Source: Phytopythium helicoides
Lineage: Eukaryota > Oomycota > Peronosporomycetes > Pythiales > Pythiaceae
Direction of reading: 5' to 3'
DNA: 64,000 nt
NCBI GenBank assembly: GCA_024867545.1
Contig: JANFNE010000050.1
Coordinates: 186,001-250,000, forward strand
The position numbers and the translations under genes were made by a program. The notes below the pieces were generated by a model. That model had not been told where the DNA came from. It searched no databases and saw only the letters and a list, made by a program, of their open reading frames with translations. This document shows positions 14,916 to 33,085 of this stretch, piece by piece; positions within the stretch are counted from its first letter, which is position 1; each line of letters opens with the position of its first letter.

Positions 14916-15232
14916 TGTGACGGGGCACACAGCACTTCGCGCACGAGGAAGCGTGCAATGCAAGTTTGACTTGCTTTTAGTATAGGTTAAAACTAACCAA
15001 ATACACGTATGCCTTTCAGGGCAAATTGGAGACTGTATTAATGTATGCATTAGAGTGTTCATGAAATGGGTGGTTCCTACAACACACAATGCAAAACTAC
15101 TTGACTAAAGTATGCAAGGCTCATGAGAGCCACTCAACCTCCGGCTCGTACTTAGCCGGAGGGCAATGGGTACACAACCCAGTGTAGCCATGGGCCGTAC
15201 CCATGGGTACGTACCCGTGTAACCCCGTTACA
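14916..15232 (-). repeat. G1a 3' LTR
   Basis: 317 bp. On the coding strand it starts TGTAACGGGGTTACA, itself a small palindrome, and ends GTCACA. It lies only 37 bp from the first ATG of the antisense ORF, so antisense transcription probably starts in this LTR. Confidence 0.93.
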
Positions 15233-15269
15233 CTCTCCCCCACTCAAATTAGAGACACCCCGCACAGGA

Positions 15270-17750
15270 GTGACTCTCGTTCCAATTTGGAACCGCCCGA
15301 CCAAACTGGGCCAGGGCCTGAACAGTCGTTCCAAAATGGGCACTCTCAAAATAGAGGCGCCGGGAACGAACGTTCCAGAGCCGCCCGTCAAAACACGACG
15401 GCGCGGCGGGGAGCGAGCGCTGCATCAGCGCTTCCGCTCAGCACTCACAGTGCACACGCTTGGGCCAGCGATGGCCAAGCAGACCTCCATGGTCACGCGC
15501 GCCGCGCGAGCGGCAGCGCTAGCATCCGGTGATGCGCGCGCCTCGCCTGCGAGCGAGGGCGCTTCGACAGCGACAGCGACCGCGGCTGCGGACAACGTCG
15601 ACGAGCGACCGGCGCGCACGCGCGACGCCGCTCGGGAGTCCGGCTCCAACACGCCGACGACTCCGACGACGGGCACACGTGCCCGTCGAGCACAGGGGAG
15701 GACTTCCCTTCGTCCAAACGTGGACAGCACCGACACCACGTCGGTGGGGACAGCGCGCGAAAGCGCAGCAGTCACGCGGACGACTCTCAACGAGTTGCCG
15801 CAAGGCTCCGCAGTGGCGGAAGCAGTTGCGAGCCTTGGCTCTGGCCACGACAGTGGCCCGGTTCATTCGCTCATGAACCCAAGGGACTTCCATCCCTTGC
15901 GCGACGCGCCTCCATTGCCGTCGCGGGACGCAGACGTCGACGACGATGCTGCGTCCTTCAGACGTGACAGCCCGTCACGTCGTGAGACTCTGTTCTCCGA
16001 CTCGGAGACCGAGGAGGGTGAGGTAGCAGAGCAACGCTACCTCACGCATGACACTAGTCATGCGAGCATTGATGCTCAGCGTCGTCCGACCGACGACGCA
16101 GGCGGTGAGCGACAGACCGCCGCCGCCTCGGCTCCGTTGGTCACCAACGACCTCGACGAGCAGCAAGAGGACACTCTTGCTCGTCGTGAGGAAGCACTCT
16201 TCGAGGCTTCCGAGGAATTTAGGACGCCTAGCGTCTTCTTTATTCCAGACCAGAGCGACCCACCGGGTGCTCTCGTCTCCGAGATCGGTCGACCGGCGGC
16301 GACGCCTGACCAGATCCATCAGCGTGATGTGAACCATCAGCTGGTGCTGGGCCGACCAGCTCGCTGGTCGTTCGAAGAGTACGGAAAGTACCTTCGCTAT
16401 ATGCTCAGCAAGCGTGAGCGTGGCCCCGGCGGCCTGCGCACGCCGATCAGCCACGAGGTCGTGGTTGTTTGCCATCCGGAGGAGACCCTCCGGATGGGCA
16501 TAGAGCAGTTCTATGCTTGGTGTCGTCGGTACAACCGACCGATTCGAGCATACATGCTCAGCTTCCGCAAGGAAGACGCGAAGGCAGTGCGCACACTGGC
16601 CTTCGAGTTCGCCAAGCTGCGCGTCAGGCGCTTGGCGAACAAGGTCGTGGAGCAAACCCACGAGGTCCCCACTCGGGCGGACCGGGGCTACGTGGCTCGA
16701 CGCAAGCCCGCGCCCCTTGCTCTTCCCGCCTCTAGGCGGAATGAGCGTGCGTCCGCTCCGCGCGGTGACGCTCAGCCTCGGCGCGGTCAAAAGCGCGCAC
16801 GAGGTCCGGGCAGTCCTCTCGCAGAGGTGCCTCGAACTCCCAGGAGTTCTGTGAGTGTGGGTAGCCACGCCACTTCACGAGGATCTGTCGTTGACCACGA
16901 CGGATCCGGCTCCGAAGGAGCGCCTCCACTACATAGTGGGTTCGACCAAGGTGGTCAAGAAGTGGCGGGGGCGGACGCGAGTCCGCCGCGCGCGAGGGTC
17001 GAGCGTCGCTCGCCGTCTGCGCCGGTGACACGGAGTTCCCGTTCACCTGCTCCTGCTCGGAGCCGCGATGATCCACCGCAGGATCTCGTTGATCGGTATT
17101 TCGATCTGACAAAGGATTATGATATCCTAGATCAGAAGTATCGTCGTGCTTCCGATCTTGCTCGCGAGCGCCGTGAGGTGCTCCGAGCGCTCCGAAAGGA
17201 GCAGGAGGAGTTGAAGCAGCAGTGCTCCTACCTCCGTGGTCAAGTTGACCTGCTGCGCGCTGCGCAGTCGACAGCCGTTGCTGTCTCACAGCCGTATCAG
17301 GCTGCTGCAGCCGCGCCGCTGTCGTATTACTCGACGGCGCCGGCTGCCTCGGCGTCGCGGTACCACGCTGGGTACCGAGAGGCTCGTCCTCGTGACGAGT
17401 GGATCCCTCACCATGAGGATCGCTACGGGCCGTACCGTAGCCACGTCGATGCGTCTGGCGAGTATCGCCAGTACCATCAGCATGGTCCGTGGTACGACGG
17501 GTACGGCTATGCGTACGATGATCTCGGTCGTCGGATCGACCGTCATCGAAGTCCTTCTCGGGACTCTGGTGCAGAGCGATCTCGCTATCGCTATGAGCCC
17601 TATGGCTCGCAGGTACCTGCACCTGCACAGGCGGTTGCTGCGAGGGCAACCCCTGTTGATGCTTCGCAGGAGACGAAGCAGGAGGCGCCGCCAGCGGCTG
17701 CCTCCAATCCTCCGGCATCTCAGCCAGTTGAGGATCGTGGTACGGCTTGA
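15270..17750 (+). CDS. G1a antisense ORF, 826 aa, unknown function
   Basis: Intact ORF on the strand opposite gag-pol; its last 1019 bp overlap the 3' part of pol. First ATG 15270; a second candidate is 15470 (MAKQTSMVTRAARAA). The N-terminal 300 residues are low-complexity and charged. A compact middle region (about 350-470) has EEYGKYLRYMLSKRERG, IEQFYAWCRRYN and SFRKEDAKAVR. A Pro/Arg/Ser-rich stretch containing KRARGPG follows, then a predicted coiled coil (DLTKDYDILDQKYRRASDLA through EEL..., about 610-660) and a Tyr/Arg/Pro-rich tail. G1b encodes a diverged protein with the same order (772 aa), so this is a conserved gene and not a chance frame. I recognise no family. A nucleic-acid-binding or coiled-coil accessory protein is only a guess. 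Confidence 0.75.
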   Translation: MTLVPIWNRPTKLGQGLNSRSKMGTLKIEAPGTNVPEPPVKTRRRGGERALHQRFRSALTVHTLGPAMAKQTSMVTRAARAAALASGDARASPASEGASTATATAAADNVDERPARTRDAARESGSNTPTTPTTGTRARRAQGRTSLRPNVDSTDTTSVGTARESAAVTRTTLNELPQGSAVAEAVASLGSGHDSGPVHSLMNPRDFHPLRDAPPLPSRDADVDDDAASFRRDSPSRRETLFSDSETEEGEVAEQRYLTHDTSHASIDAQRRPTDDAGGERQTAAASAPLVTNDLDEQQEDTLARREEALFEASEEFRTPSVFFIPDQSDPPGALVSEIGRPAATPDQIHQRDVNHQLVLGRPARWSFEEYGKYLRYMLSKRERGPGGLRTPISHEVVVVCHPEETLRMGIEQFYAWCRRYNRPIRAYMLSFRKEDAKAVRTLAFEFAKLRVRRLANKVVEQTHEVPTRADRGYVARRKPAPLALPASRRNERASAPRGDAQPRRGQKRARGPGSPLAEVPRTPRSSVSVGSHATSRGSVVDHDGSGSEGAPPLHSGFDQGGQEVAGADASPPRARVERRSPSAPVTRSSRSPAPARSRDDPPQDLVDRYFDLTKDYDILDQKYRRASDLARERREVLRALRKEQEELKQQCSYLRGQVDLLRAAQSTAVAVSQPYQAAAAAPLSYYSTAPAASASRYHAGYREARPRDEWIPHHEDRYGPYRSHVDASGEYRQYHQHGPWYDGYGYAYDDLGRRIDRHRSPSRDSGAERSRYRYEPYGSQVPAPAQAVAARATPVDASQETKQEAPPAAASNPPASQPVEDRGTA

Positions 17751-20700
17751 GTAGCCCCACGTAGAAGACCGGATGGGTCTTCATCCTCGATGGGATGTTG
17801 AGCCTGTACGCGTTGCCGTGTACGGCTTGGACCGTGAATGGTCCGATGAAGCGAGGCCTCAGCTTCGTCTTCGTGACCGCGGTGACCGCGTTCATCGGTA
17901 GGTTCTTTGCATTTAGCATAACCAAGCCACCGACTTTGAATACATGTGTATTCTTTCGACCAGACTTATCGCTTTGCTCTTTTTGTCGGTCTTGCGATGC
18001 TGCCATGGCATCTCTCACGCGTCCAATGACGCCGAGACGGTTCTCGACGAACTCGTCTAGTTGCTTTCGCAACGCGGCTGGCTTGACAGCCGCCAAACGG
18101 GAGGCGTACTCCGCCTCTGCCTCAGCATGTGGGCGGAGAAGCCGAGCCTCTCCCCCACTCGAACCAGAGCCCCCGGGTCCCACCGGTGAAAGGCTCAGCG
18201 GCACTCGCGGGTGCCGCAAGTGGTTCACGAAGAACGGCGTGCAGCCCGTCGAGGCATGCACGGCGTTGTTCATAGCGAACTCCACTAGCGGGAGCTTCGC
18301 GCTCCATGACTTTGGAGCAGCAGCACATGTGCTGCGGAGGATATCCTCCAGAACGCGGTTCGCGCGTTCGGTCTGACCATCCGTCTCAGGGTGGTCTGCA
18401 GTCGACATCATCAGTCGACTGCCGAGCAGCTGGAACAGCTCTCGCCAGAACGAGGCATTGAACCTCGGGTCTCGGTCCGAGACGATGGACTCAGGCAGTC
18501 CATGAGCACAAAACACGTGCTTGATGAACAAAGCGGCCGCCCCGGGGCCGTCGATGTTCTCTGAGCATGGTGCCAGATGCACCATCTTGCTCAGACGGTC
18601 CACGAACACCAACACGCCTGTGTTGCCGTGGCCGTCCTTCGGTAAACCGAAGACAAAGTCCAAACTAACGGACCTCCAGCAATCCGCTGGGACTGGCAGA
18701 CTGGCCAGTGGCGCGGCGGCTGATGGAGCCGCCTTGACGCGCTGACATGTTTCACATGTCTTGATGTACGTGGCCACCCACTTGTACATGTGGGGCCCCC
18801 AGTACCTGCTGCTTACCGCAGCGTAGGTCTTCTCACGACCGAGATGACCACTTACGAGCGCATCATGCGCCTCGTAAAGGATTTGATACCGCAGATCCTC
18901 TGCCAAGGGTATCGCAATCCGAGGGGGATCCGATGGATCCACGCTGTAATACAGCAGTCCATCCGCGTACGTGTACCGGTGGACTCGGGCGCGTAGTCGC
19001 GCCGACAAGCTGTCCTTGCCTGCTGTGCGCAGGTGCTCGATCAGTGCTGTGCACTGATCGTCGTCGGCGTACGCCGCACGAATCCGATCGATCAGATCGA
19101 TCGTGAGCGTCGCGATGTGTGACAGCTCATAGTCTGGTCGACGCGACAGAGCGTCTGCAAGCACATTCTGCTTGCCTGGCTTGTACTCGACGCGGAAATT
19201 ATATTCCGCGAAGAATGACAGCCAGCGCGCCATCCTCTGCGAGAGGTGTGGCGACTGCGTCGCTGTCCGCAGCGACGCATGGTCTGTGTAGACCACGAAC
19301 TCACGTTCGCCGAGCAAGTGCACTCGGAACTTGACAAGAGCGTACTTCATCGCAAGTAGCTCCTTGTCATGAACTGGATAGTTCTTCTCGGCGGCCTTGA
19401 GCTGCCGAGACTCGAACGCTATAACGCGTTCGTGACCGTCCTCATCGGTCTGCAGCAATGCACAACCGATTGCAAAATCGGAAGCGTCGCACACGACGCT
19501 GAACGGCTTCTCGTCGTTCGGGAGCGCCAGGATTGGTGCTCGGAGAAGACTCTCCTTGATGCGTTCGAATGCATCCTGCTCGGTCGATGACCAGCGCCAC
19601 TCTGCATCCTTCTTGAGGAGCAGTGACAGCGGACGTGCCATTTCGGCGTAGTTCTCGCTGTGCTTGTGCAAGTAGTTGGACAAGCCCAACCACTTGCGCA
19701 AGTCCTTCTGGTTCAGTGGAACCGGCCATTCGACAATGGCTTTGACCTTCGCGGGGTCCGCACGCACTCCGTGCTTGCCTAGGAAGCTCCCCAGGAATGG
19801 GATCTCTTCCGCGCCAATGACACACTTGTCAATGTTGGCGAAGAGCTTGTTAGCTCTCATGCACTCGAACACCGTTCGCAAGTGCTCGACGTGCATCTCG
19901 ACGTCCGTCCTGCCATCCTTGGCGCGACTATGGACGAAGATGTCGTCGAAGTACGTTTGCACGTACTCACGCATAGGCCGGAACAAGTTCACGACCAGAC
20001 GATTAAACGTCGCTGGGGCATTCGAAAGCCCCTGTGGCATCACAAGCCACTCCCACAGCATGCCGCTCGGCGTGCTGACGGCTGTCAGTGGCACTGACGC
20101 CGGGTCCATGAGGACCTGATAGTACCCGTCAGTCAGGTCTATCGCACTACGGATAGTGCTGCCCGCCATGTTGTTCAACATGACCTCCTTGCGAGGTATG
20201 GGCGTCTGGGCCGGGATCGTAGCAGCGTTCAACTTGTTGAACGCATGCACGATGCGCCATTTGCCGTTCGGTTTGCGAACGCAAAACGTTGGCGACGAGT
20301 GAGGGGATTTCGACTCCCTCACTAGGCCAGCTTCATGCTTGGCCTTAAAGAACGCGTCGATTACATCGCACTGTTCTTTCGGCAGCGGCCACTGCCTCGT
20401 GACACAATACTTTGTGCCCGGCATGAGGTCAATCTCATGCAGAACTCCACGATCTGGTGGCAGTTCAGACGGCGGGTCTTGCGACACCACGTCTTCGTAC
20501 TCCTTGAGTACCGCGTAGAAGGGATCCTTTGGATCCTTCAGGATCTCGGAGCCGCGGCGGGCATTCACCTTGCCGCGGACCTCCACTAGGACGTCTTCGT
20601 CCATGACAGACGAGCTGTTGAGCTCGGCTGTCGCCACTGTTGGTCTTAGCACGACCACTTCAGCGACTTCACCGCCCTGCAAGGCGTCTGTGAAGTCCTG

Positions 20701-21996
20701 GAAGGACATCTCGTCCAGCTCCACCAGAGCATTTAGCTCTGGGAGCGGGTGCAGTGGCACCGCTGGGGCAATCTCTCTGCCCGAAACTCCGTCAAGGAGT
20801 TTGTACTCCGTCCATTGATGGACTGGACGCGTCGCTTGGAAGCGACCGTCTTGCACTGCGGTTAGTGCTGGGGTGTTCGTCGACACCACGCTCGACGCAT
20901 CATCGTCGGCACGCTGCATCCGTGCAGCAAGAGGTTTCACCACCTCTGCGGGACTCTGCGGTCCGTCGGCACTCGACCCGTAGGTCGGCGCGTGTCCATT
21001 CATGGACACCTCAGGCTCACACTGCCGTTCGGCAGGAGCATCGGTGCGTTTACTTGCACCTCGAGCCATCCGTTGGCTCCGCGAGCTGTCGTCGGCGACA
21101 CTCGCTGGCTCACACCGCCTGTTGGCAGGAGCATCCGCGCGCTTTCTTGCGCTTCGAGCCACACTTTGGCTCCGCGGCCTGTCACCCTTGACAGCCGCTG
21201 GAGTGTCCTCATCACTCCGGGCATCCGTTGGCAGCGGTGCCCAAGTCACATGTGACTTCTTTGGGATCGACTTTGTCCCCAAAGCCGATCGCGCTCCACC
21301 GTGCACGACCACGGGAGCAGCATCGTTGCGATGCTCGACAGTTGCAGCTGTCGGGGGCCTGTCCACAACTTCGGACACCCCAATGAGGAATTCCTCTTTG
21401 TCAACACGACGCTCAAGTCGTTGTTGACGCGGCCATCGGCCAGGAGTGGTGACGCCAGTCGCCACTGCTCTGTCCGAGTAAGCGGGCTTACTCGCTCCGA
21501 TCGATTTGGTTTTCCAATCGATCCATGGCTCATGCTTCTCGAGCCATGGCATGCCGAGGATGAGATCGTATCTCTCATCCAGATCGAGCACCATGAAGCG
21601 CTCGACACTGTCGAAGTCTTCAAAGCGGACACGCAGGTCCGCTAAGATCAATGGGGTTTCCACGATCTTCCCCGTCGCCAGCCTCACGGCGACGGTCTCG
21701 GTGGAAGCCTCCTCGCTTCTCACCGCGGCGAAGGCCTTTGGCTCCTTCGCCAACGTGGCGCGGCGAGCGTAATTGCTCGACGCGCCCGAGTCGATGAGAA
21801 CCCTCATCGACTCCGCGTAGCCCTTCACGTCTACCTGGACCACCAACAAGGGCACGCTGTTGGCGTCCACTCCAACACGAGAGAGCTCGGCTCTCTCGGG
21901 GGCTAAGCCCCTGTCGTGATCGCCACCCCGATCACGACTGGAACTTAGTGTTCCCCCAGTAGGGCGCCCCGCGCCTACTGGGACTTGGAGTTTCCC
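16732..21996 (-). CDS. G1a Pol polyprotein with C-terminal chromodomain
   Basis: Pol in the -1 frame relative to gag, entered at the slippery site 21990-21996; the frame is open from 22158. Domains in order: aspartic protease (RVLIDSGASSNYARRA), a long Ser/Arg-rich spacer, RT (RIVHAFNKLNAATIPAQTPI, MPQGLSNAPATFNRL, YFDDIFVHSR), RNase H (FSVVCDASDFAIGCALLQ, YTDHASLRT), and integrase (SGHLGREKTYAAV...CETCQRVK; LDFVFGLPKDGHGN; SDRDPRFNASF; HPETDGQTERANRV). After integrase comes a variable, His/Arg/Ser-rich tail of about 250 residues that overlaps the antisense ORF, then a chromodomain (YVVEALLRSR, QILVKWRGYPHSQNSWE). There is no stop inside. Chromodomains of this type bind modified histones and direct integration. 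Confidence 0.93.
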   Translation of the reverse strand, partial: GKLQVPVGAGRPTGGTLSSSRDRGGDHDRGLAPERAELSRVGVDANSVPLLVVQVDVKGYAESMRVLIDSGASSNYARRATLAKEPKAFAAVRSEEASTETVAVRLATGKIVETPLILADLRVRFEDFDSVERFMVLDLDERYDLILGMPWLEKHEPWIDWKTKSIGASKPAYSDRAVATGVTTPGRWPRQQRLERRVDKEEFLIGVSEVVDRPPTAATVEHRNDAAPVVVHGGARSALGTKSIPKKSHVTWAPLPTDARSDEDTPAAVKGDRPRSQSVARSARKRADAPANRRCEPASVADDSSRSQRMARGASKRTDAPAERQCEPEVSMNGHAPTYGSSADGPQSPAEVVKPLAARMQRADDDASSVVSTNTPALTAVQDGRFQATRPVHQWTEYKLLDGVSGREIAPAVPLHPLPELNALVELDEMSFQDFTDALQGGEVAEVVVLRPTVATAELNSSSVMDEDVLVEVRGKVNARRGSEILKDPKDPFYAVLKEYEDVVSQDPPSELPPDRGVLHEIDLMPGTKYCVTRQWPLPKEQCDVIDAFFKAKHEAGLVRESKSPHSSPTFCVRKPNGKWRIVHAFNKLNAATIPAQTPIPRKEVMLNNMAGSTIRSAIDLTDGYYQVLMDPASVPLTAVSTPSGMLWEWLVMPQGLSNAPATFNRLVVNLFRPMREYVQTYFDDIFVHSRAKDGRTDVEMHVEHLRTVFECMRANKLFANIDKCVIGAEEIPFLGSFLGKHGVRADPAKVKAIVEWPVPLNQKDLRKWLGLSNYLHKHSENYAEMARPLSLLLKKDAEWRWSSTEQDAFERIKESLLRAPILALPNDEKPFSVVCDASDFAIGCALLQTDEDGHERVIAFESRQLKAAEKNYPVHDKELLAMKYALVKFRVHLLGEREFVVYTDHASLRTATQSPHLSQRMARWLSFFAEYNFRVEYKPGKQNVLADALSRRPDYELSHIATLTIDLIDRIRAAYADDDQCTALIEHLRTAGKDSLSARLRARVHRYTYADGLLYYSVDPSDPPRIAIPLAEDLRYQILYEAHDALVSGHLGREKTYAAVSSRYWGPHMYKWVATYIKTCETCQRVKAAPSAAAPLASLPVPADCWRSVSLDFVFGLPKDGHGNTGVLVFVDRLSKMVHLAPCSENIDGPGAAALFIKHVFCAHGLPESIVSDRDPRFNASFWRELFQLLGSRLMMSTADHPETDGQTERANRVLEDILRSTCAAAPKSWSAKLPLVEFAMNNAVHASTGCTPFFVNHLRHPRVPLSLSPVGPGGSGSSGGEARLLRPHAEAEAEYASRLAAVKPAALRKQLDEFVENRLGVIGRVRDAMAASQDRQKEQSDKSGRKNTHVFKVGGLVMLNAKNLPMNAVTAVTKTKLRPRFIGPFTVQAVHGNAYRLNIPSRMKTHPVFYVGLLKPYHDPQLAEMPEDWRQPLAAPPASSPAKHQQGLPSQQPPVQVQVPASHRAHSDSEIALHQSPEKDFDDGRSDDRDHRTHSRTRRTTDHADGTGDTRQTHRRGYGTARSDPHGEGSTRHEDEPLGTQRGTATPRQPAPSSNTTAARLQQPDTAVRQQRLSTAQRAAGQLDHGGRSTAASTPPAPFGALGAPHGAREQDRKHDDTSDLGYHNPLSDRNTDQRDPAVDHRGSEQEQVNGNSVSPAQTASDARPSRAADSRPPPPLLDHLGRTHYVVEALLRSRIRRGQRQILVKWRGYPHSQNSWEFEAPLREDCPDLVRAFDRAEAERHRAERTHAHSA
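21955..21996 (-). promoter_or_regulatory. G1a -1 ribosomal frameshift signal
   Basis: On the minus strand the gag frame reads CG[G GGA AAC]: the X-XXY-YYZ heptamer GGGAAAC (21996-21990). A 7 nt spacer TCCAAGT follows, then a hairpin at 21982-21955 with a 9 bp stem CCCAGTAGG/CCTACTGGG. The gag UAG stop sits in the 5' arm. A -1 slip gives GGG AAA and enters the pol frame exactly. Heptamer, spacer length and hairpin are all kept in G1b. Confidence 0.85.
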
Positions 21997-22988
21997 CGCC
22001 CACGGGTAGCCGCAAAGCGACCGGTGAGCGTGCGCGGCGGTCCGTTGAAACGACCGCGCGCAGGACGAGTGTTCTCTCGTCCAGCAGCACCGCGCATGTA
22101 GCGCAGGCGCTGCGGGCAGTTGCGCTGCATGTGGCCAACCTTGCCACATCGGAAGCACGTCACATTGGCGTGTCCTTCCGCACTGCCGAGCTCCATGGGC
22201 TCGGCCGATGACTCCGTCATCTGCGTAGCTCCCGTTCCTCGGGACTGCGCTTGGCGATGGCAGTAATCCTCCTGCATCGCGATGTGGACAGCCTCCTCGA
22301 AAGAGGACGGCTGTGCACGGAACAACTGCGTCCGTGCAGGGCCAACACGGAGGCCCTCCATGAAGATCGTGACCTTCACGATCTCGGGGAGCGGATCGCT
22401 GATCATACCAGCGATCAACGTACGCAGCTCCTGCACGTACGTCGCAAGCTCACGCTTGCCTTGGCGTGACGCCAAGAACTGCGAGCGTACCTGGTACGCC
22501 GCGTTCGGTGGCAAGAACGCCACTTGCATCTCTCTGCGGAGATATTCCCATGTTGGGAACGCACCTTCGACGGTGCTGTCGCGCGTCAGCGCCCAACTCT
22601 TGGCGCGACCTCCTAGGTGGGAGATCGCGAAAGCCACCTTCAGGTTTTCCTCTCGAATGAGAGCGGCCGACATGGCCATTTCCGCTTCGCGGAACCAGAG
22701 GAGGAGATTCTCTCCGTCCTCTCCATTGAAGGCCTTCACCTTCAGCTGCAGCGGCTTCGCTCGCAGCGTGGACGATGGTGTCGCCACCATCGTCGGCATC
22801 GCACGTTTGATGTGCTCGACGAGGGCGTTCTCGTACTCGACGAACGCCTGGATGCGGCTGGTCTGCTCAGCCACATCCTGCGACAGCAGTTGGCGCACGC
22901 CATCGGCGCCCAAGATGCTGTGCATCTTACGCAGCGTTCCCCACTGAGTCTCACTTAAGTGAGGGAACTGCGCGGGATCGAACTCCAT
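21975..22988 (-). CDS. G1a Gag
   Basis: 337 aa from ATG 22988; the start parallels G1b (MELDRAQFPHLSETQWG). An ATG at 23018 would add ten residues. It has a gypsy capsid (Retrotrans_gag-like) core with LLLWFREAEMAMSAAL, SHLGGRAKSWAL, FPTWEYLRREM, YVQELRTLIAGM and GLRVGPARTQLF. One CCHC zinc knuckle (CFRCGKVGHMQRNC) and an Arg/Gly-rich tail (RGRFNGPPRTLTGRFAATRG) follow. Ends in UAG inside the frameshift hairpin. Confidence 0.93.
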   Translation of the reverse strand: MEFDPAQFPHLSETQWGTLRKMHSILGADGVRQLLSQDVAEQTSRIQAFVEYENALVEHIKRAMPTMVATPSSTLRAKPLQLKVKAFNGEDGENLLLWFREAEMAMSAALIREENLKVAFAISHLGGRAKSWALTRDSTVEGAFPTWEYLRREMQVAFLPPNAAYQVRSQFLASRQGKRELATYVQELRTLIAGMISDPLPEIVKVTIFMEGLRVGPARTQLFRAQPSSFEEAVHIAMQEDYCHRQAQSRGTGATQMTESSAEPMELGSAEGHANVTCFRCGKVGHMQRNCPQRLRYMRGAAGRENTRPARGRFNGPPRTLTGRFAATRGRGNSKSQ

Positions 22989-23068
22989 CGTGAGTCGATC
23001 GGAACCACAGAGGTTCAAGTCCTTGACGACTCGCGGCGGTCGTGGACGGACTACTAAGTGCTACCAGG

Positions 23069-23739: not shown

Positions 23740-24998
23740 TAGATCCTCACCTCACCTTTGCTCGTCAAACTTACCGACGATCCGCTTGCCGACAAGAGGA
23801 TGAACCGACACATGCAGTTCCGTCCATGCAAGATGACAGGTGCGCTCGGGCCAACGCTTGTCGACTTTGGTGACGTACTTCGCAATCTTCTCCACCTTAC
23901 CTCCGTCAACAAATACCGGCATCGGCATGTGCAGATAGCGCAAAAACGCCGGCTCCAGCAGCAGATCGACGTCTGCGAACCCATGACGCATCAAATCTGC
24001 GGCCAAATCCAACAGCCGAAAGTAGATCTCTTTGGCGTGGGTGTGACGCTGCTTCCGTTAGTTCGACGCCGTCGATACAACGATCAAGTGGTGGGTTCGC
24101 TCCCAAAACCACCGAATCTTCTCGCGGTTAAGCCTGGAAAGCCGATACCAGAAGGATTTGAGGTCAGGCGCACAGTCATCCAGCGAAAATGTGATCGGGG
24201 CCTTCGGAGCAAAGCACCCAGGTCCTTCCAAGGTCCGGTCGCTTGGAAAGTGTCGGCAGGTTACATGAGACCAAGATCTTCGGGTATCATTGATACGGGA
24301 GTTGTGTGTGATAGTAGAACGGGATCCGCGTGTCGATCAGCGTCCTGAGCTGCTCCGCAGTCGGAGATCGGGCAACCTTCGAGTCCTTTCGGGGGAAATG
24401 AACGGCCACTGGGTCTGGTCAGCGGGGGCGAGTTGATCTTCGATAGCAAGCACTCCGTCGTCTGGGATCGGTGGCAGATCATTGCTCGCTATGTAAGCAA
24501 TCCACAGATCGAAGATTGGGAGCACAGACAGAGTATCGGACGTCCTGAGCTGCGTGGGCGAGCTTTCGTCGTCGTAGGACTTGTTGGAAGACGCGCGCGC
24601 TTTGCGCTTGCCCGAACTGGACTTGGATCCATGCACCTTGGCACTCTTTGAGCTCGATCTTAGCCCAGAAGCCTTGCCCCTACTCCGATCTTCGATCTTG
24701 ATTTTGTTTTCGGCAGAATCAACCCCAGTCAGGTCGATCGTGGCGTTCTGGACGAAAGCAGCAGCACCAAAGAGATGTCAGTCTAAGATCGAAACGCTCC
24801 AGCAAAACAGACCCAAGATCGCGCCTCGCATGTCAACGCCGCGATGATTGCTTGTGCATTCCGAGCGGCAGGTCGAGGGTTTCGACGCGGCATGGTTGAC
24901 AGAGAGTCAGGCACACTCGACGAGGGGCGGTGCTTGGCCGCACTGACGGGAGCGCCAGAGATCTTGGACTCGCCATCCCCTGCGATAGCTGGTGGCCT
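23740..24998 (-). pseudogene. Element D antisense ORF remnant
   Basis: Broken reading frames on the minus strand, convergent with D pol. The piece at 24060-24180 reads DLKSFWYRLSRLNREKIRW followed by FWER. It aligns with GLKTLVRQWNRLRDQEFQAF and FWER in the antisense ORF of E3. Further on, HAKEIYFRLLDLAADLMRHG aligns with ADSLRFHYGRFLYEAHSLLE of E3. Upstream pieces (24337-24636, 24783-24998) are Ser/Arg/Pro-rich like the E3 N-terminal half. D thus had the same antisense gene in the same place. Cut at 24998 by G1b. Confidence 0.72.
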
Positions 24999-25313
24999 TG
25001 TAACGGGGTTACACGGGTATGTACCCATGGGGGTAGCATGGCTACACTGGGTTGTGTACCCATTGCCCTCCGGCTAAGTACGGCCGTGAGGTTGAGTGGC
25101 TCTCATGAGCCTTACATACAGTAGTCAAGTAGTTTGCGTACAGTCCTTGTAGGAACCACCCATTTCGAATGGGCTGTAACGCATACAAATACACAGTCTC
25201 TATTTTACCGCCTACCACACAGACCCTCAGGTCGTTTGGCTAGCCAGCTCGGTACTTCGTACCTACGAGCTGCAACGCTTCCTCGAAGCATAGTGCTGTG
25301 TGACTCCGTCACA
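24999..25313 (+). repeat. G1b 5' LTR
   Basis: 315 bp, TGTAACGG...CCGTCACA. A PBS-like TGGTAGCACTTTG follows at 25315, matching that of G1a. Confidence 0.9.
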
Positions 25314-25394
25314 CTTGGTAGCACTTTGTAGTCCGTCCTCGACCATCGCGGGTCAGACGAACCTGAACCTCTGTGGTGAGAGCTCTGCACAAGC

Positions 25395-26398
25395 ATGGAG
25401 CTCGATCGCGCTCAGTTCCCTCACCTCAGTGAGACTCAGTGGGGAGCATTGGGCAAGATGCAATGCATCCTTGGTCCGGAAGGGCTCCAGCACCTGCTGA
25501 CTCAGAGCCCTGACGTGCAGTTAACGCGCGTCGAGCAGCATCTCAACAACATGCTCTCGTTGACCACGTCCGAGGCGTGCTGCAAGTACCGCAGCCGGCG
25601 CCAACACCCGTCAGGGTGCCGAGCGGTGTGAAACCGCTGCACCTGAAGGTCAAGCCCTTCACAGGTGACGAAGGCGAGAACCTATTGTTGTGGTTCCGCG
25701 AGATTGAGATGGCCATGATGGCCGCGCTCCTCTCTGAGGAAAGCCTGAAGGTGGCTTTCGCGGTCTCCAACATGGGAGGCCGCGCGAAACGCTGGGCGCT
25801 AACACGCCACAACAGCGTTGCAAGCGCGTTCCCGACGTGGGAGCACCTCAAGGATGAGATCAAGGTGACGTTCTTACCGCCGAACGTCGCGTACCAAGTA
25901 CGCTCGCGCTTCTTGACGTGTCGTCAAGGGAAGCGTGAACTTGCCGAGTACGTGCAAGAGCTACGCACACTCGAAGCGGGCATGATCTTGGATCCTCTGT
26001 CCGAGCAGACGAAGGTGACTATATTCATGGAGGGTCTGCGAGTTGGGCCTGCGCGAACCCAGTTGTTCCGTGCGCAACCAGCCACGATGGAAGAAGCTTT
26101 CCGTGTGGCGATCCAAGAGGATTACTGTCATCGACAGGCTCGCGTGTCTACAAGCGCAGCGTCTTCGACGCCGGTGATCAATGAGCCGGAGCCCATGGAG
26201 CTCGGCAGTGCTGAGCAGCGTCGCACCCAAGGCGCATGCTTCACCTGTGGCCGGATGGGCCACGTGCAGCGCAACTGTCCTCGTCGTCTGCAGCAGACTG
26301 GACGCTTTGGCCCTCGCCAAGGGCGCAATTTGCGTCAGCCCGGTGGCCGGATCTTTGGTGGTCGTGGCCGCGGGCAGGGAAACGCTCAATCCCAGTAG
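25395..26398 (+). pseudogene. G1b Gag, frameshifted
   Basis: Same protein as G1a Gag (MELDRAQFPHLSETQWG at 25395; LLLWFREIEMAMMAAL; CFTCGRMGHVQRNC knuckle; RGRNLRQPGGRIFGG tail). The frame changes near 25560-25600 because bases are lost between the N-terminal segment and the capsid core. From about 25577 it is open to the UAG at 26396-26398. Confidence 0.88.
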
Positions 26399-26418
26399 GC
26401 GCGGGGCGCCCTACTGGG
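26377..26418 (+). promoter_or_regulatory. G1b -1 frameshift signal
   Basis: GGGAAAC at 26377-26383 in the gag frame (CA[G GGA AAC]), 7 nt spacer GCTCAAT, hairpin 26391-26418 with the same CCCAGTAGG/CCTACTGGG stem as G1a. The spacer sequence differs from G1a while its length, the heptamer and the stem do not. Confidence 0.85.
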
Positions 26419-29400
26419 GAAGAACTAAGTTCTTTGGTCGAACGGGGTGGCGTTCGTTCGGAGGGCTTAACCCCAGAGAGAGCAGTGCTCTCGAGTGCAA
26501 TGGACGCCAGTAACTCGCCGTTGCTGGTGGTTCACGCGAGCGTGAAGGGATACGCGGAGCCGATGCGAGTGCTCATCGACTCTGGTGCATCGAGCAATTA
26601 TGCTCGACGAGCTAGCCTCATGCGGAACATGGATATGTTCGAGGCCGCGCGAGGCGCAAGTGAGTCGTCAAGCACAATAGCGGTGCGTTTGGCGACAGGA
26701 AAGGTTGTTGAAACAACTAAGATCAACATGGATCTTCGTGTCCTCTTTGAGGGTTTCAATTCGGTCGAACGATTTGTCGTTCTGGACCTTGACGAGAAGT
26801 ATGATCTCATCCTCGGCATGCCCTGGCTCGAGAAGCATGAGCCATGGATCGATTGGCGATCAAAGTCGATCGGGGCAAGTAAGCCCGTATCCTTCGACCG
26901 CGAGACGGTGAGCAATATTGCCACGTCGTCGCGCTGGCACCGCCGAGATCGGCGTGAGTGCCGCCCTGACAAGAGGGCTGAATATCAAGTTGGGGTGTCT
27001 GAAATCATGGACACACCCTTACGAGACGATGTCTCTGCCTGCGCTGAGAGCGCCGTCGTAGCCGTGAAGGCTAGAAAAAGAAGAATGCACATGTGCATTG
27101 GGCTCCGTTGCCTCTGGACGAGGTGAGCCCGGCTCCACAAGGGAGCCGAAGGCAGTTAGTCAGCAAGACCGTGCAGAAGACTGGAACGGGACAGGATCTC
27201 GTTTTCCGACGCGAGATGAGCGTCCGACTCTTGGGTAGAGAGGGTGTCGTGAAGGCACCGGTGCTGAAGGCACCCGAGGTCGCGGTTTGTGCGGAAAATG
27301 CACACCCGACAGTGAACCACGTGGAAGTGGTCACGCCTATGGCGGTCAGGACGACCGCGGCGCCAACGGACACGAGTTGTGCCATAAGTCCCAACCATGG
27401 GCAGGAGTATCGTCTGGTTGACGGCGTGTCCGGAGCTGTGCTCGCACCTTCGGTGCAGTTGGAGCCGCTCCCCGAGCTGAATGCTCTATTGGAAATGGAC
27501 GAAATGTCTGTTCAAGACTTCACCCACGCGCTGGATGGTGGGGAAGTCGCTGAAGTAGTGGTCATTAGACCCGAGACCGAGTTGCGAGAGCTAAATAGCT
27601 CCTCGGTGATGGACGAAGCTGTCCTCGAAGAGATCCGCGAGCGAATCCATGCTCGGCGTGGATCCGAGATCCTCAAGAATCCAACGGATCCGTTGTACTC
27701 GCTGTTGAAGGAGTATGAAGATGTGGTGTCGACTGACCCACCATCTGAGCTGCCGCCCGACCGAGGGGTCCGGCATGAGATCGATTTGATCCCAGGTACT
27801 AAGTACTGTGTGTCAGTGGCCATTGCCACGCGAGCAGTGCGACGTCATTGACGCCTTCTTTCGTGCGAAGCACGAAGCTGGGTTGGTGCGTGAGAGCAAG
27901 TCTCCGCACTCGACGCCCACGTTCTGTGTTCGAAAACCGAGCGGGAAATGGCGAATCGTCCATGCGTTCAACAAGCTGAACGCCGCGACGATTCCGGCAC
28001 AGACGCCGATACCTCGAAAGGAGGTGCTGCAGAACAACATGGCAGGCAGCACGATTTTCAGCGCTTTGGATCTAGTAGATGGCTACTATCAGATCCTGAT
28101 GCGTGATGAGGACGTCCCTCTCACGGCGGTGAGCACTCCGAGCGGTATGCTCTGGGAGTGGCTAGGGATGCCGCAAGGGCTGTCGAATGCCCCCGCGACG
28201 TTTAACAGGTTGGTCACCCAACTGTTTCGTCCACTGCGTGCATTTGCACAGACGTACTTTGACGATATTTTCGTCCACAGCCGTTCGGACAACGGTCGCT
28301 CGGACATTGAAGTCCACAAAGAGCACCTGCGCGAGGTGCTCGAGTGCATGCGAGCAAACAAGCTCTTCGCCAACATCGACAAGTGTGTCTTCGGCGCGGA
28401 GGAGATACCATTCCTCGGTTGCTACATCGGTAGTCACAGAATCCGTGCTGACCCAAACAAGGTCAAGGCAATCGTAGATTGGCCGGTTCCGATGAACCAG
28501 AAGGACCTGCGCAAGTGGCTCGGTCTTGCCACTTATCTGCACAAGTACAGCAAGAACTATGCCGAGATGGCACGACCTCTGTCGCTTCTGCTGAAGCAGG
28601 ACGCAGAATGGCTCTGGGAGCAACAGCATCAAGATGCGTTTAATCGAATCAAGGAGAGCTTGCTCCAAGCTCCGATTCTGGCGTTGCCAGATGCGAACAT
28701 ACCATTTAGCGTCGTGTGTGACGCGTCTGACTTCGCTATAGGCTGTGCATTGTTGCAAGCCGACGCCGAAGGGCGTGAACGCGTGATCGCGTTTGAGTCT
28801 CGACAGCTTAAGGCTGCCGAGAATAACTATCCAGTTCATGACAAGGAGCTACTTGCGATGAAGTATGCTCTTGTCAAATTTCGAGTGCACCTGCTCGGTG
28901 AGCGTGCGTTTGTGGTCTACACTGACCATGCGTCCTTACGGACAGCGACGTCGTCGCCACATCTCTCGCAGAGAATGGCTCGGTGGCTCTCCTTCTTTGC
29001 GGAATACAACTTCCGCGTGGAGTACAAGCCCGGCAAGCAGAACGTGCTTGCAGACGCGCTTTCACGCCGTCCTGACTATGAGTTGTCTCACGTGACATCC
29101 GTCACTACGTCGCTCCTGGAACAGATACGCACAGCGTATGAGCATGACGAGTCATGCAGGACCCTCTTGCGCCACTTGGCGCCTGATGTGTTTGAGGGTG
29201 AAGGTGAGCTCACGCCTCGTTTGCGGTCGCGTATACACTGCTTCTCCGTCGTCGACGGTTTGCTGTACTACTGCACAGATCGAATGGATCCACCACGGGT
29301 TGTCGTCTCCCTGGACGATGATATTCGGTATCGCATCCTCTACGAGGCGCATGATACACCGCTTGCTGGCCATTTGGGCCGCGAGAAGACGCACAACGCG

Positions 29401-31437
29401 GTCAGTACGACGTACTGGTGGCCCCACATGTACAAGTGGGTGGCCTCTTACGTCAAGACGTGTGAGACGTGCCAGCGCGTGAAGGCTGCGCCTTCAGCTG
29501 CAGCCCCGCTACACAGCCTTCCTGTCCCACAGGACTGCTGGGAGTCCGTCAGCTTAGACTTTGTCTTTGGACTCCCCAAAAATGCTCACGGCAACACCGG
29601 TGTGTTGGTGTTTGTCTGCCGTTTGAGCAAGATGGTGCATTTGGCACAATGTTCGGAGAAGATGACGGCCAAAGGAGCGGCGCAGCTCTTTCTCGAGCAT
29701 GTGTTCCGGGCTCATGGCCTCCCCAAGACGTTGGTCTCTGACCGTGATCCACGTTTTGTGGCAACATTCTGGCGCGAACTGTTCCGGTTGATGGGAACGC
29801 GCCTCGACATGTCGACCGCTGACCATCCACAGACCGATGGTCAAACCGAACGCGCGAACCGCGTTCTCGAAGACATCCTTCGATTCGTTTGTGCCGAGGC
29901 ACCACGCTCTTGGAGCACGATGCTCCCGTTTGTTGAGTTTGCAATGAACAACTCGGTGCATGCCTCTACGGGCTGCACCCCGTTCTACGCGAACGGACTG
30001 CATCACCCACGTGTCCCGCTGACACTGACGCTTGAGCCGTCCGGGGCCTCTGCCTTGAGTGGGGGAGAGGCTCGGCCGCTTGCGGCCTCCCGTCATGTTG
30101 AAACAGTGTCGGTTCGGCTGCAAAAGCAGCTTGATGACTACTTGAGCACGAGACTCAGCGTCATTAGACGCGTGCGCGACGCAATGGCGTCTGCGCAAGA
30201 TAAGCAGAAGGAACAGAGCGACAAACATGGTCGTAAGAATACGCATGTATTCAAGGTTTGTGATTTAGTCCTACTAAATGCACGAAACCTACCACTCAAT
30301 GCAGTGAGCGCGGTCTCCAAGACCAAACTGCGGCCCCGCTACATTGGACCGTTCAAGGTCGTAGCTCGGAAAGGGAGCGCGTACACGCTCTTGTTGCCTT
30401 CGGCAATGAAAACACACCCAGTGTTTTATGCCGGGCTTCTCAAGCCGTATCTGGACCCGACGGCTTTAAGTCAGCTGTCAGATCAAGAGCCGAGGGCTCA
30501 ACTGCAGCAAGAGCCGCCGCCTGAGGCTGACGGGAGTCAGCAGACGCAACCACATCAGTCGGTCGGGCTCGAGGAGCCTCGAAGGACGAGTAGCGTGGGC
30601 GGTACGAGCTCGCACGCTCAGCCGCCTCGTCAACACGCCGCTCCTCATAACGCGCAGCGTCAGAGTACCCATAGTACTCACGCTCGTAGCGCCGATCGCG
30701 CTCACGCTCACGCTCATAGCGAGGCTCAAGCGAGCTCTGGCGTGACGGTCCCTGACCGTAGTCGTAATCGTCGTAACGATACGGCTCACGCGAAGGAATG
30801 GCACGTCCCCATGACGACGGCCGACCCATTGTCGAGTACGACATCACCTCCACCCTTCCTTGAAGGTTCGAGAGTTGACCGAGTTGGTCGCGGAGGTCAC
30901 GGTCATGACCGCCAACACGACCACGCAGATCATGGATCCGACGATCCTGTGTCTCTGACCGAGCAGCACGCTCAAACCCAGCGCGCTCAACCGCGTCGAC
31001 ACGCTGTTGCTGTCGCTCCAACTGCTCTTGGAGTGCACGAATCTGACGAACGGCCTCGTCATGATCACGACGCAGCTCCGCGAGCTGATCACGAAGCTCC
31101 TGCTCGACGTGAGCAAAGGATGACGGGCGACCGCCCACATCCCCATTCGGACTTCGAGTCCCACGACCATGCGACATCGGTCGCAAAGGAGTTGCCACTG
31201 CGCCCTCCTCCAGCTCTGCTTGACCCCCTGGGTCGTAAGCATTATCTGGTTGAAGCGCTGGTGAAGCATAGACTTCGGCGCGGACAACTCCAGTACCTTG
31301 TGAAGTGGCGGGGGTACCCGCACTCACACAACTCGTGGGAGCCAGCGAACGTCCTCCTCGAGGATTGCCCGGACCTCGTGCGCGCTTATGAGTCGAATCG
31401 GACTCAGCGCCGTGGTGGTCCCGCGCAAGGCGCTTAG
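26382..31437 (+). pseudogene. G1b Pol, two frameshifts before RT
   Basis: Protease (RVLIDSGASSNYARRA, 26566-26615) and its spacer are in one frame to about 27,078. An A-rich run (GAAAAAGAAGAA) there shifts frame. The second segment runs to about 27,812, where bases missing before QWPLPREQCDVIDAFF shift it again. From 27808 a single ORF of 1209 aa covers RT (YFDDIFVHSR), RNase H (CDASDFAIG), integrase (GHLGREKTHNAV, CETCQRVK, SDRDPRF, TDGQTERANR) and a chromodomain (YLVEALVKHR, YLVKWRGYPHSHNSWE). The last 998 bp overlap the antisense ORF. It closely resembles G1a in the RT core. Confidence 0.88.
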
Positions 31438-32758
31438 CGCCGTCGGAATGGCCACTCCGTGGTTGAGACACCTGCCCACGGATGGCCTCAATGGCAGGGG
31501 GGAACTCTGAAGGTCGACCGACCGTCCCCTTTGCCAACAACTTCGCATAGAAGAAGCGCAGTTGCCGCTCGGACATAACGTCCTCTCTGCGGAAGCTCTC
31601 GTTGAGAGTCGTGAACGGAAAACCGTTCTGCGTACACCACTGCTGGAAGCCAGCGTGATACTGCGCGACAGTCTCATCGGGTCGAAGGACCAGCGGGTAT
31701 TGCCTGTTCATGGAAGGCACCTGCCTGCGAGCAGCTTGATCATCCAAGCGTTGCTCATACTCTCGTGGAGAGAACACAAGTGGCTCGAGATAGCGAGCAC
31801 GGAGCGCATGGCGCTGAGCCACCTCATGTGAGTACCAAGCTCGGTAGCGCCGTGCTTGCAACCCAGGCGCGGTCAATGAGCCATAGCGCTCTTCGAGCTC
31901 TGCATCGGTCCGAGATTGAGGACGCGTGTCCTCAAGGTCCACATCCATGGGTTGGGGGCGCACGAACGAGTTCGTTTCCCCGAGAAGCTCCTCTTGAGCA
32001 CCATCGAGATCGTTGGTGATGATCTCTCCTTCTTCTTGATCGCTCACGGGTGAGCGTGGTGTCAGAGAAGTGTGCGATGGCGCAGCACCGACGCTGTTGC
32101 TCGGTGCCGAGGCACTTGGAGCAGGAGGCTTGTCCTCATCGGACTCGTCGTAGTCCACTTGCATGGACTCAGTGGGCGACGGGTACTCCCTGTCATGCCT
32201 CGCGCTTTCGCGCACGACGCTTGCGCTGGTGGCGCTAGCAACATGAACGTCCTCGACGTCCTGCTGCGCCACCGCGCTGTTGGCCCTTTCGGGTGCGTCT
32301 GGCACGGCGTGCCGCGACGTAGGCGGTGAGTCCTCGTCAGTTGCTTGAGGCGTCGCCGACGCCATCTTGCGCAGTCGCGCTGACTGCCGTCGGTGATACT
32401 CGCCCACCGACAAGCGCGGAGTGGTAACCTCGTTACGGGCTTGCAGGCTCGAGGAGCCTTGAGAGTTAGTACCACCGCTCGCGCGGGGTGCTGGGAGAGT
32501 CGCAGCAGCTGCAGGCGGTGCAGCGACTGCAGGGGCTTGTGCGGTTGCACTCCCCGACTGTTCGGACCGAACAGCAGCGTCCGAGGACGCGGCAGCCTCG
32601 CCGCGGGTGCGTGGCGTCTTGCCAACTGTCATGGACAGTGCATCGGAACGACCGTTCCTCCTCCGCCGCTTTTTCGCGAATGACCAGTTTGGAACGACTG
32701 TTCCCGGTCGTGAACCTATTTGGGTCAGGCGTGCCTTTTTGGAAAGTGAGTGACTCAC
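30440..32758 (-). CDS. G1b antisense ORF, 772 aa, unknown function
   Basis: Intact ORF opposite pol, starting 17 bp from the 3' LTR and overlapping pol by 998 bp. Same order as the 826 aa G1a protein: a basic start with KKRRRRNGR, disordered Ala/Pro/Ser region, EEGE and ITNDLD, and a core with FSPREYEQRL and SFRREDVMSERQLRFFYAKL (G1a SFRKEDAKAVRTLAFEFAKL). Then come KRARGPGNPRG, a coiled coil (ELRDQLAELRRDHDEAVRQI onward) and a Tyr/Arg-rich tail. It is far more diverged from the G1a protein than the pols are from each other, yet it is free of stops while gag and early pol of this copy are broken. Second possible start at 32632 (MTVGKTPRTRGEA). Confidence 0.75.
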   Translation of the reverse strand: MSHSLSKKARLTQIGSRPGTVVPNWSFAKKRRRRNGRSDALSMTVGKTPRTRGEAAASSDAAVRSEQSGSATAQAPAVAAPPAAAATLPAPRASGGTNSQGSSSLQARNEVTTPRLSVGEYHRRQSARLRKMASATPQATDEDSPPTSRHAVPDAPERANSAVAQQDVEDVHVASATSASVVRESARHDREYPSPTESMQVDYDESDEDKPPAPSASAPSNSVGAAPSHTSLTPRSPVSDQEEGEIITNDLDGAQEELLGETNSFVRPQPMDVDLEDTRPQSRTDAELEERYGSLTAPGLQARRYRAWYSHEVAQRHALRARYLEPLVFSPREYEQRLDDQAARRQVPSMNRQYPLVLRPDETVAQYHAGFQQWCTQNGFPFTTLNESFRREDVMSERQLRFFYAKLLAKGTVGRPSEFPPAIEAIRGQVSQPRSGHSDGAKRLARDHHGAESDSTHKRARGPGNPRGGRSLAPTSCVSAGTPATSQGTGVVRAEVYASPALQPDNAYDPGGQAELEEGAVATPLRPMSHGRGTRSPNGDVGGRPSSFAHVEQELRDQLAELRRDHDEAVRQIRALQEQLERQQQRVDAVERAGFERAARSETQDRRIHDLRGRVGGHDRDLRDQLGQLSNLQGRVEVMSYSTMGRPSSWGRAIPSREPYRYDDYDYGQGPSRQSSLEPRYERERERDRRYEREYYGYSDAARYEERRVDEAAERASSYRPRYSSFEAPRARPTDVVASADSRQPQAAALAAVEPSALDLTADLKPSGPDTA

Positions 32759-32775
32759 ATCTGAGTGGGGGAGAG

Positions 32776-33085
32776 TGTAACGGGGTTACACGGGTATGTA
32801 CCCATGGGGGGGGCTACACTGGGTTGTGTACCCATTGCCCTCCGGCTAAGTACGGCCGTGAGGTTGAGTGGCTCTCATGAGCCCTGCATACAGTAGTCAA
32901 GTAGTTTGCGTACAGTCCTTGTAGGAACCACCCATTTCGAATGGGCTGTAACGCATACAAATACACAGTCTCTATTTTACCGCCTACCACACAGACCCTC
33001 AGGTCGTTTGGCTAGCCAGCTCGGTACTTCGTACCTACGAGCTGCAACGCTTCCTCGAAGCATAGTGCTGTGTGACTCCGTCACA
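32776..33085 (+). repeat. G1b 3' LTR
   Basis: 310 bp, preceded by the purine tract GAGTGGGGGAGAG. It differs from the 5' LTR by a short indel near its start. Confidence 0.9.

What the first reader, a model, noticed from the sequence alone, without database searches (positions are those of the whole stretch)
14916..33085. Long antisense ORFs overlapping pol by about 1 kb in two diverged copies of gypsy family G1
G1a (15270-17750, + strand, 826 aa) and G1b (30440-32758, - strand, 772 aa) both carry an uninterrupted ORF opposite pol. Each starts 17-37 bp from the 3' LTR and overlaps the pol tail and chromodomain for 998-1019 bp. The two proteins share order and local motifs (SFRKED/SFRRED, KRARGPG, EEGE, coiled coil, Tyr/Arg tail) but are far more diverged than the pols. 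In G1b the antisense ORF is intact although gag and early pol have at least three frameshifts. A chance frame would not keep this order in two copies. It implies an antisense promoter in the LTR and a protein of unknown role.
Basis: partly seen in the sequence, partly recalled or inferred. Interest (0 to 1): 0.9.

Follow-up and report, generated by a model that had tools for sequence, protein, structure and literature searches.

The report
Antisense gene inside oomycete gypsy retrotransposons
Jumping DNA elements in an oomycete (water mould) carry a second gene on the opposite strand, running back over the end of the polymerase gene, and evolution is keeping that hidden protein working.

Summary
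Both ORFs lie where stated. They are not chance frames. Six families of one reverse-transcriptase clade of chromodomain Ty3/gypsy elements in this oomycete genome carry a 350-826 aa antisense ORF at the same place and in one phase against pol. Copies diverge as a protein gene does: in the C11/C16 pair dN/dS is 0.35 outside the overlap and 0.20 in the conserved domain. Inside the overlap the strands split the constraint: the antisense frame rules opposite pol's linker (0.23; pol 1.40), pol rules in its chromodomain (0.16; antisense 2.46). Pol relatives outside this genome avoid linker dipeptides that would put stops in this frame (0 seen, 9.2 expected, 24 proteins). A stand-alone gene elsewhere in the genome carries a related domain. 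Antisense accessory genes are known in plant and fungal LTR elements; my searches found none reported for oomycetes. Transcript, promoter and function are untested. Best reading: an HBZ/GENE23-like accessory protein made from antisense RNA. New variant of a known kind.

The parts
14916..15232 (-). 3' LTR of element G1a (minus-strand element); the 5' LTR is 23069-23385
   Evidence: no mismatch between the two LTRs (317 of 318 columns, the gap being one flanking base in my slice); TG..CA ends and GAATG target duplication
15233..15245 (-). polypurine tract next to the 3' LTR, between LTR and antisense ORF
   Evidence: read from the sequence; assignment inferred
15270..17750 (+). antisense ORF of G1a, 826 aa from GTG; first ATG at 15336, next at 15471 (likelier start, inferred)
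   Evidence: open in 8 of 8 full-length matches
16011..16025 (+). EEGE[LIV] motif of the antisense protein, outside the pol overlap
16410..16730 (+). conserved domain of the G1a antisense protein (aa 381-487), outside the pol overlap; possibly helical
   Evidence: low-confidence model
16732..22158 (-). G1a pol; chromodomain about 16786-16935, variable linker about 16954-17747 opposite the antisense C-terminal part
21975..23018 (-). G1a gag
   Evidence: named by order and by the CCHC-like end, read from the translation
24999..25313 (+). 5' LTR of element G1b
25383..27815 (+). G1b gag and early pol, broken by three frame changes
27808..31437 (+). G1b main pol frame; chromodomain about 31243-31395
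30440..32758 (-). antisense ORF of G1b, 772 aa from GTG; first ATG at 32632
   Evidence: open in 3 of 4 full-length matches
31439..31711 (-). conserved domain of the G1b antisense protein (aa 350-440), outside the pol overlap
32776..33085 (+). 3' LTR of G1b; presumed seat of antisense transcription start
   Evidence: promoter role inferred

Best explanation
The ORFs are copies of an old antisense accessory gene that belongs to one clade of oomycete chromodomain Ty3/gypsy elements. It begins just inside the 3' LTR, runs backwards through the pol-LTR spacer, crosses the chromodomain and ends in or at the variable linker behind the integrase SH3-like module. SHOWN by computation: it behaves as a protein-coding gene under purifying selection, in a fixed phase against pol, and the overlap is tolerated because much of it falls on a fast-changing pol linker where the antisense protein sets the constraint. 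INFERRED: an antisense RNA starting in or beside the 3' LTR is translated into a basic, low-complexity protein with a small domain and, in several families, a coiled-coil-like or RS-rich tail. It probably acts in the nucleus as an element-encoded regulator of its own element's transcription, RNA or integration, as HBZ does for HTLV-1 and as is proposed for Grande GENE23 and Retand proteins. Confidence in the gene about 0.93; in the regulator role about 0.4.
For: Match outside the overlap. Open in 8 of 8 full-length G1a matches, 3 of 4 G1b, and in the L042 family 19 of 21 matches have the full 350-aa frame, with no stop in any of the 21. Six families in one RT clade; one shared phase. dN/dS and codon-position pattern with a switch at the chromodomain: summed over five families, antisense third positions take 223 of 469 changes outside the overlap (P=1e-10) and 89 of 158 opposite the linker (P=3e-9), while opposite the chromodomain 45 of 68 changes fall on pol third positions (P=3e-8; P values; the short stretch behind the chromodomain is not in these sums). 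Avoidance of stop-forcing dipeptides in the linker of 24 relatives whose pol tails are at most 75% identical to any family here. Motif hits only in antisense ORFs. Stand-alone gene with a related domain.
Against: No transcript, peptide or promoter evidence. The seven closest G1a copies alone show no third-position excess outside the overlap (17 of 48). Broken copies exist: C21, C81, C18, C51 for G1a, C8 and both C1 copies for G1b, C70 (one stop) for L044, and C21 and C28, split in two frames, for L043. G1b pairs have few changes and dN/dS of 0.47-0.78 outside the overlap. The G1 domain shows no profile similarity to that of the other families (hhalign probability 0.1-0.2%); they are linked by position, phase and short motifs. 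Three stop-forcing dipeptides do occur in the chromodomain of 2 of 24 relatives. Structure models were poor (pLDDT 46 and 55) and matched nothing, so the role rests on analogy.
Confidence: 0.85

Rival explanations
1. A chance open frame, kept long by high GC and by codon usage of pol on the other strand.
For: GC of the non-overlapping parts is 0.61-0.65, and the longest frame in random sequences of that make-up has a median of 169-206 codons.
Against: 487 and 440 codons open outside pol in 0 of 2000 random sequences each; dN/dS outside the overlap 0.33-0.46 for G1a copies against L016 and 0.35 for L044/L050; pol itself is relaxed opposite the antisense C-terminal part.
Confidence: 0.03
2. The conserved thing is antisense RNA (for example a trigger of small-RNA silencing), not a protein.
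For: Small RNAs of both strands map to abundant gypsy elements in Phytophthora infestans (PMC3522703, passages).
Against: RNA function does not explain the codon-position-3 excess, the frame-specific constraint, or avoidance of stop-forcing dipeptides in relatives. An added RNA role is not excluded.
Confidence: 0.05
3. The antisense protein has a structural or replication role (nucleocapsid-like RNA binding, nuclear import) and is not a regulator.
For: Basic, RS-containing tails and a C-x7-C-x2-C pattern in L043, L044/L050 and L046.
Against: No profile match to the G1 elements' own Gag and no capsid, nucleocapsid or envelope family in Pfam. Not excluded.
Confidence: 0.35
4. A captured host gene in antisense orientation, of no use to the element.
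For: A stand-alone gene with a related domain exists.
Against: Presence in all six families of the clade that I read, in one phase, with purifying selection within families, means the elements keep it.
Confidence: 0.07

Closest known systems
Antisense aORFs of plant Tat-lineage gypsy elements (Grande GENE23, RIRE2, Retand)
   Same: Antisense ORF between pol and 3' LTR, kept in most copies; nuclear protein and own promoter reported for Grande (PMC7264820, parts 1 and 2 of 3 read; PMC11963269, passages).
   Different: Retand is a non-chromovirus plant lineage (PMC11963269, passages). Its Transposase_28 domain was not found here. Here about 1 kb lies over pol and its chromodomain; the text I read does not describe such an overlap.
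Antisense gene brtn of Boty-like elements in Botrytis
   Same: Antisense additional gene in a gypsy element of a filamentous microbe (PMC8365987, passages; PMC7264820, parts read).
   Different: Fungal; sequence not compared here; overlap with pol unknown to me.
HBZ of HTLV-1 and ASP of HIV-1
   Same: Antisense gene read from the 3' LTR side (recalled; HBZ also in PMC11963269 passages and the 3' LTR promoter of HTLV in PMC7264820).
   Different: HBZ is a bZIP protein (recalled); no bZIP match here. ASP lies opposite env (recalled).
Antisense ORF of mussel Steamer-like element MchSLE-1
   Same: 3' LTR proposed as promoter of an antisense mRNA with an ORF (PMC10974842, passages).
   Different: 67 aa only.
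Chronos elements of oomycetes
   Same: Oomycete gypsy elements with a chromodomain (PMC5348765, passages).
   Different: Chronos carries an additional RNase H; none was found in G1 pol. The word antisense does not occur in that paper's main text.

Membership tests
Antisense aORF between pol and 3' LTR (aORF-3R, general kind) | ORF antisense to gag-pol, between pol and 3' LTR | tested here: met
   for G1a and G1b (with overlap into pol); for the others, where the LTR was not mapped
Antisense aORF between pol and 3' LTR (aORF-3R, general kind) | Present in most copies and conserved as a protein | tested here: met
Antisense aORF between pol and 3' LTR (aORF-3R, general kind) | Transcribed antisense from its own promoter | not testable with these tools
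   no RNA data
Retand/Grande (plant Tat lineage) | Transposase_28 domain (PF04195), the mark of Retand antisense proteins | tested here: not met
   Pfam scan of 7 antisense proteins up to E=10, no match
Retand/Grande (plant Tat lineage) | Non-chromovirus, no chromodomain | tested here: not met
   chromodomain PF00385 in both G1 pols
Boty-like elements with brtn | Sequence homology of the antisense protein to brtn | not tested
   brtn sequence not at hand
HBZ-type retroviral antisense protein | bZIP domain | tested here: not met
   no bZIP family among Pfam matches up to E=10; feature recalled
HBZ-type retroviral antisense protein | Transcription from the 3' LTR | not testable with these tools
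   ORF starts 17-37 bp from the LTR, suggestive only
Chronos (oomycete) | Additional archaeal/plant-type RNase H domain | tested here: not met
   only the RT-associated RNase H families match G1a and G1b pol
Retroviral env-like gene | Sense orientation after pol | tested here: not met
   ORF is antisense

The most novel reading that the evidence does not exclude
An old antisense gene family was passed between oomycete retroelements and their hosts: the gene at C82:90266-91225, with a relative 50% identical in an unnamed database contig, is either a domesticated antisense protein now used by the host against the elements, or the host gene from which the elements built their antisense regulator. 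In the elements it owns the pol linker, so that sense and antisense proteins share one kilobase by dividing it into segments.
Probability: 0.33. Interest if true: 0.85.

Novelty: new variant of a known kind. Interest (0 to 1): 0.72.

Why it matters
Antisense genes of LTR elements have mostly been argued from open frames and copy conservation (PMC7264820, PMC11963269, parts read). Here selection, phase and a clean switch of constraint between strands show that a kilobase-scale antisense overlap with pol is a real gene, in a eukaryotic group for which my searches (listings) showed no report. It makes the old question of what such proteins do testable in several related families at once, with a stand-alone gene as a second handle. 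Gene callers that forbid long opposite-strand overlaps would hide it (inference), which may be why a database rich in the pols (614 matches) gave no match to the antisense protein (a weak search).

Tried and rejected
Protein search with the whole G1a antisense ORF found nothing. The query is low-complexity and only the 7996 candidates sharing most words were scored, so this is weak evidence of absence; a control with pol residues 600-1000 found 614 relatives, and the 120 listed include many Phytophthora and Globisporangium entries. Searches of solved-structure sequences gave nothing below E=0.33. AlphaFold2 of the G1a domain alone and with G1b gave pLDDT 46 and 55; Foldseek found nothing at E<=0.001, so I make no fold claim. 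Viral contigs gave no relative. Gag origin of the domain: no profile match. G1 domain against the other families' domain: no profile match, so I do not claim domain homology there; the link is by position, phase and short motifs found by eye and then counted. BLAST of the two pols left out the strongly similar RT region for a reason I did not find; identities are taken from a global alignment. In one search the rows with copy L031 are wrong, because the aligner dropped its stop codons; they are not used, and one search replaces them at the DNA level. The L043/L051 value there (0.53) is inflated by a frame-shifted N part; one search leaves that part out. L046 has one copy and gave no selection test. 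Only 24 of the 120 listed pol relatives (of 614) could be used in the dipeptide test: 83 lacked the linker motif and 13 a chromodomain pattern. Over linker plus chromodomain: 3 seen, 18.4 expected. A first, stricter version used 11: 3 seen, 10.2 expected. An expectation of one third per codon position ignores composition; the reversal at the chromodomain argues against a composition cause.
Full report
WHAT IS THERE. The window lies in a 49 Mb genome with 64 matches to the elicitin family, which gives no match in the 14 control genomes; elicitins are an oomycete family (recalled). G1a is a minus-strand Ty3/gypsy element (LTRs 14916-15232 and 23069-23385, target duplication GAATG) and G1b a plus-strand one (LTRs 24999-25313 and 32776-33085). 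Both pols hold RT, RNase H, integrase, an SH3-like module and a C-terminal chromodomain. On the opposite strand each carries the reported ORF, with overlaps of 1019 and 998 bp and gaps of 37 and 17 bp to the LTR.

WHICH SIMILARITY COUNTS. The pol stop divides each antisense ORF into a part free of pol (aa 1-487 in G1a, 1-440 in G1b) and a part opposite the chromodomain and the linker before it. Restricted to the free parts, the two proteins still match (32% over 87 aa, E=2.8e-8), and the motifs EEGE[LIV] and TNDLD lie there. KRARGPG is opposite the chromodomain and therefore not independent. RT-RNaseH is 84% identical between G1a and G1b and the antisense domain 33%, so the antisense protein evolves fast, but as a protein.

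COPIES. In this genome 8 of 8 full-length G1a matches are open without a stop; four further loci (C21, C81, C18, C51) are broken or mosaic, plus one 60-residue fragment. For G1b 3 of 4 full-length matches are open, one has three stops, and two copies on C1 are split by frame changes. In the L042 family 19 of 21 matches have the full 350-aa frame, one has an altered end, one is partial, and none of 21 has a stop. In the L043 family two copies are whole and two are split; in the L044 family C11 is whole, C70 has one stop, and C16 is the 67% relative L050; L046 has one copy.

A TRAIT OF A CLADE. I read the 3' region of 16 further gypsy copies. With G1a and G1b, six families carry a long antisense ORF at this place: L042 (350 aa), L043/L051 (623 and 586), L044/L050 (675 and 650), L046 (518) (these lengths are stop to stop). 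In an RT tree these form one group, split from the rest with support 0.999; by midpoint rooting its sister group is C26, C68_107 and C57_611. Of the copies outside the group I read the 3' region of five (L052, L053, L054, L055, L057). None has an antisense ORF over 250 aa; the longest seen in L053 (250), L057 (247) and L054 (213) lie beyond the pol end. L054/L055 have a chromodomain-like pol end and still lack it. The 3' regions of C57_611 and several other tree members were not read. In all six families the phase is the same: antisense position 1 faces pol position 1, 2 faces 3, 3 faces 2.

SELECTION. For L044 against L050, outside the overlap: dN/dS 0.35, changes by antisense codon position 74/57/124; in the conserved domain 0.20 (22/15/51, P=2e-6). 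In the overlap, opposite the linker: antisense 0.23, pol 1.40. Chromodomain: antisense 2.46, pol 0.16. Behind the chromodomain: antisense 0.26, pol 1.35. Upstream of the antisense ORF, pol is 0.10. So each segment has one owner. G1a copies against L016 give 0.33-0.46 outside the overlap. Position counts in G1a, G1b, L042 and L043/L051 lean the same way outside the overlap and opposite the linker, with fewer changes; the chromodomain counts are tiny there (19 changes in all). Summed over the five families: antisense third positions take 223 of 469 changes outside the overlap and 89 of 158 opposite the linker; opposite the chromodomain 45 of 68 fall on pol third positions (sums; P values). Against this: the seven closest G1a copies alone give 17 of 48 outside the overlap, no excess.

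OTHER GENOMES. DNA of relatives was not available, but in this phase pol Phe (both codons) and Ile (two of three codons) followed by a codon starting with A force an antisense stop. In 24 pol relatives (4 named Globisporangium splendens, 20 database entries without an organism name; tails at most 75% identical to any family here), Phe/Ile followed by Lys/Asn/Thr/Ile/Met occurs 0 times in the linker against 9.2 expected from shuffles (1 of 2000 as low). A control signature for another phase is not depleted (2 against 2.6). In 13 relatives without a recognised chromodomain the tail is not clearly depleted (7 against 10.2). In the chromodomain 3 occur against 9.1, all in 2 Globisporangium proteins; chromodomain counts are not independent between relatives. 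In G1a and G1b the antisense stop falls on the conserved LLK of the SH3-like module; in L042, L044 and L050 about 10 residues behind LK, in L043 about 15, in L046 much further.

WHAT THE PROTEIN LOOKS LIKE. It has an Ala/Ser/Pro/Thr-rich N part (except L042), a small domain, and a charged C part: coiled-coil-like in L042 and G1 (weak sub-threshold matches), RS-rich in L044/L050. The domains of L043, L044/L050 and L046 match each other (E=4e-18 to 7e-5) and share a C-x7-C-x2-C pattern that G1a, G1b and L042 lack. L042 joins by profile (probability 69%, E=4.5e-5 for one comparison). G1 does not join by profile. It does share two short motifs with L043, in the same order in G1b and L043: all 11 hits of one and all 23 of the other in 328,148 residues of six-frame ORFs lie in antisense ORFs. 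Those hits are copies of three families each, the motifs were chosen after seeing the sequences, and the loci searched were fetched for these ORFs. No Pfam family fits above its cut-off.

A STAND-ALONE GENE. C82:90266-91225 is an open 320-aa frame with the L043-type domain (E=3e-9), the same C-x7-C-x2-C pattern and a coiled-coil-like end. Four pols of this clade found no match in the 2.9 kb read, 1.9 kb of it on the side where a pol would lie but only 75 bp on the other. The stretch read also holds transposase-like frames (read from the translation), so membership of another kind of element is not excluded. It is the only full match in the genome; five weaker ones are C50 and L043-family ORFs. 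It has one database relative, 50% identical. Profile comparison of the pair with the element domain: probability 95.5%. Whether the element gene came from it or the reverse is open.

MECHANISM. Shown: a protein-coding antisense gene kept by the elements. Inferred: transcription from the 3' LTR side, nuclear action, regulation of the element. The closest described cases are plant Grande/RIRE2/Retand and fungal Boty elements (PMC7264820, parts 1 and 2 of 3 read; PMC11963269 and PMC8365987, passages), retroviral HBZ (recalled, and passages) and a 67-aa antisense ORF in a mussel element (PMC10974842, passages). The listings of searches of the open library showed no report of an antisense gene in oomycete gypsy elements; listings are capped, most listed papers were not opened, and subscription journals are mostly missing.

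Noticed in passing
L088:364-1326 (G000:C82:90266-91225): Stand-alone gene sharing the antisense-ORF domain, with a coiled-coil-like C-terminus; one database relative (P0122).
   Followed up: partly
G000:C50:412051-412461: A second weak match to the same stand-alone gene, with one stop; could not be fetched.
   Followed up: no
L021 (G000:C51:1-4100): Mosaic G1-like copy: antisense aa 648-826 98% identical to G1a, the rest only 50-61%, suggesting recombination between subfamilies.
   Followed up: no
window 24982-24999: G1b has 12 extra bases between a GCGAT copy and the TG start of its 5' LTR, while GCGAT follows the 3' LTR directly.
   Followed up: no
window 33461-33664: Third LTR-like fragment, 93-96% like parts of the G1a LTR.
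   Followed up: no
window 11453-12784: Two neighbouring ORFs in one frame; the second matches DDE_Tnp_4 (E=3.6e-10), the first only weakly (E=0.085). A transposase gene interrupted by a stop or an intron.
   Followed up: partly
L044:1977-2339 (minus strand) and L050: Pol frame continues about 120 codons past the chromodomain but is unconstrained (dN/dS 1.35), so this sense tail may be a passenger of the antisense gene.
   Followed up: partly
L056:412-1143 (G000:C87): 244-aa ORF ending GGSFTLQ with a GGGIYGG stretch, reminiscent (from memory) of polinton or adenovirus-type minor capsid proteins; no Pfam match up to E=0.1.
   Followed up: partly
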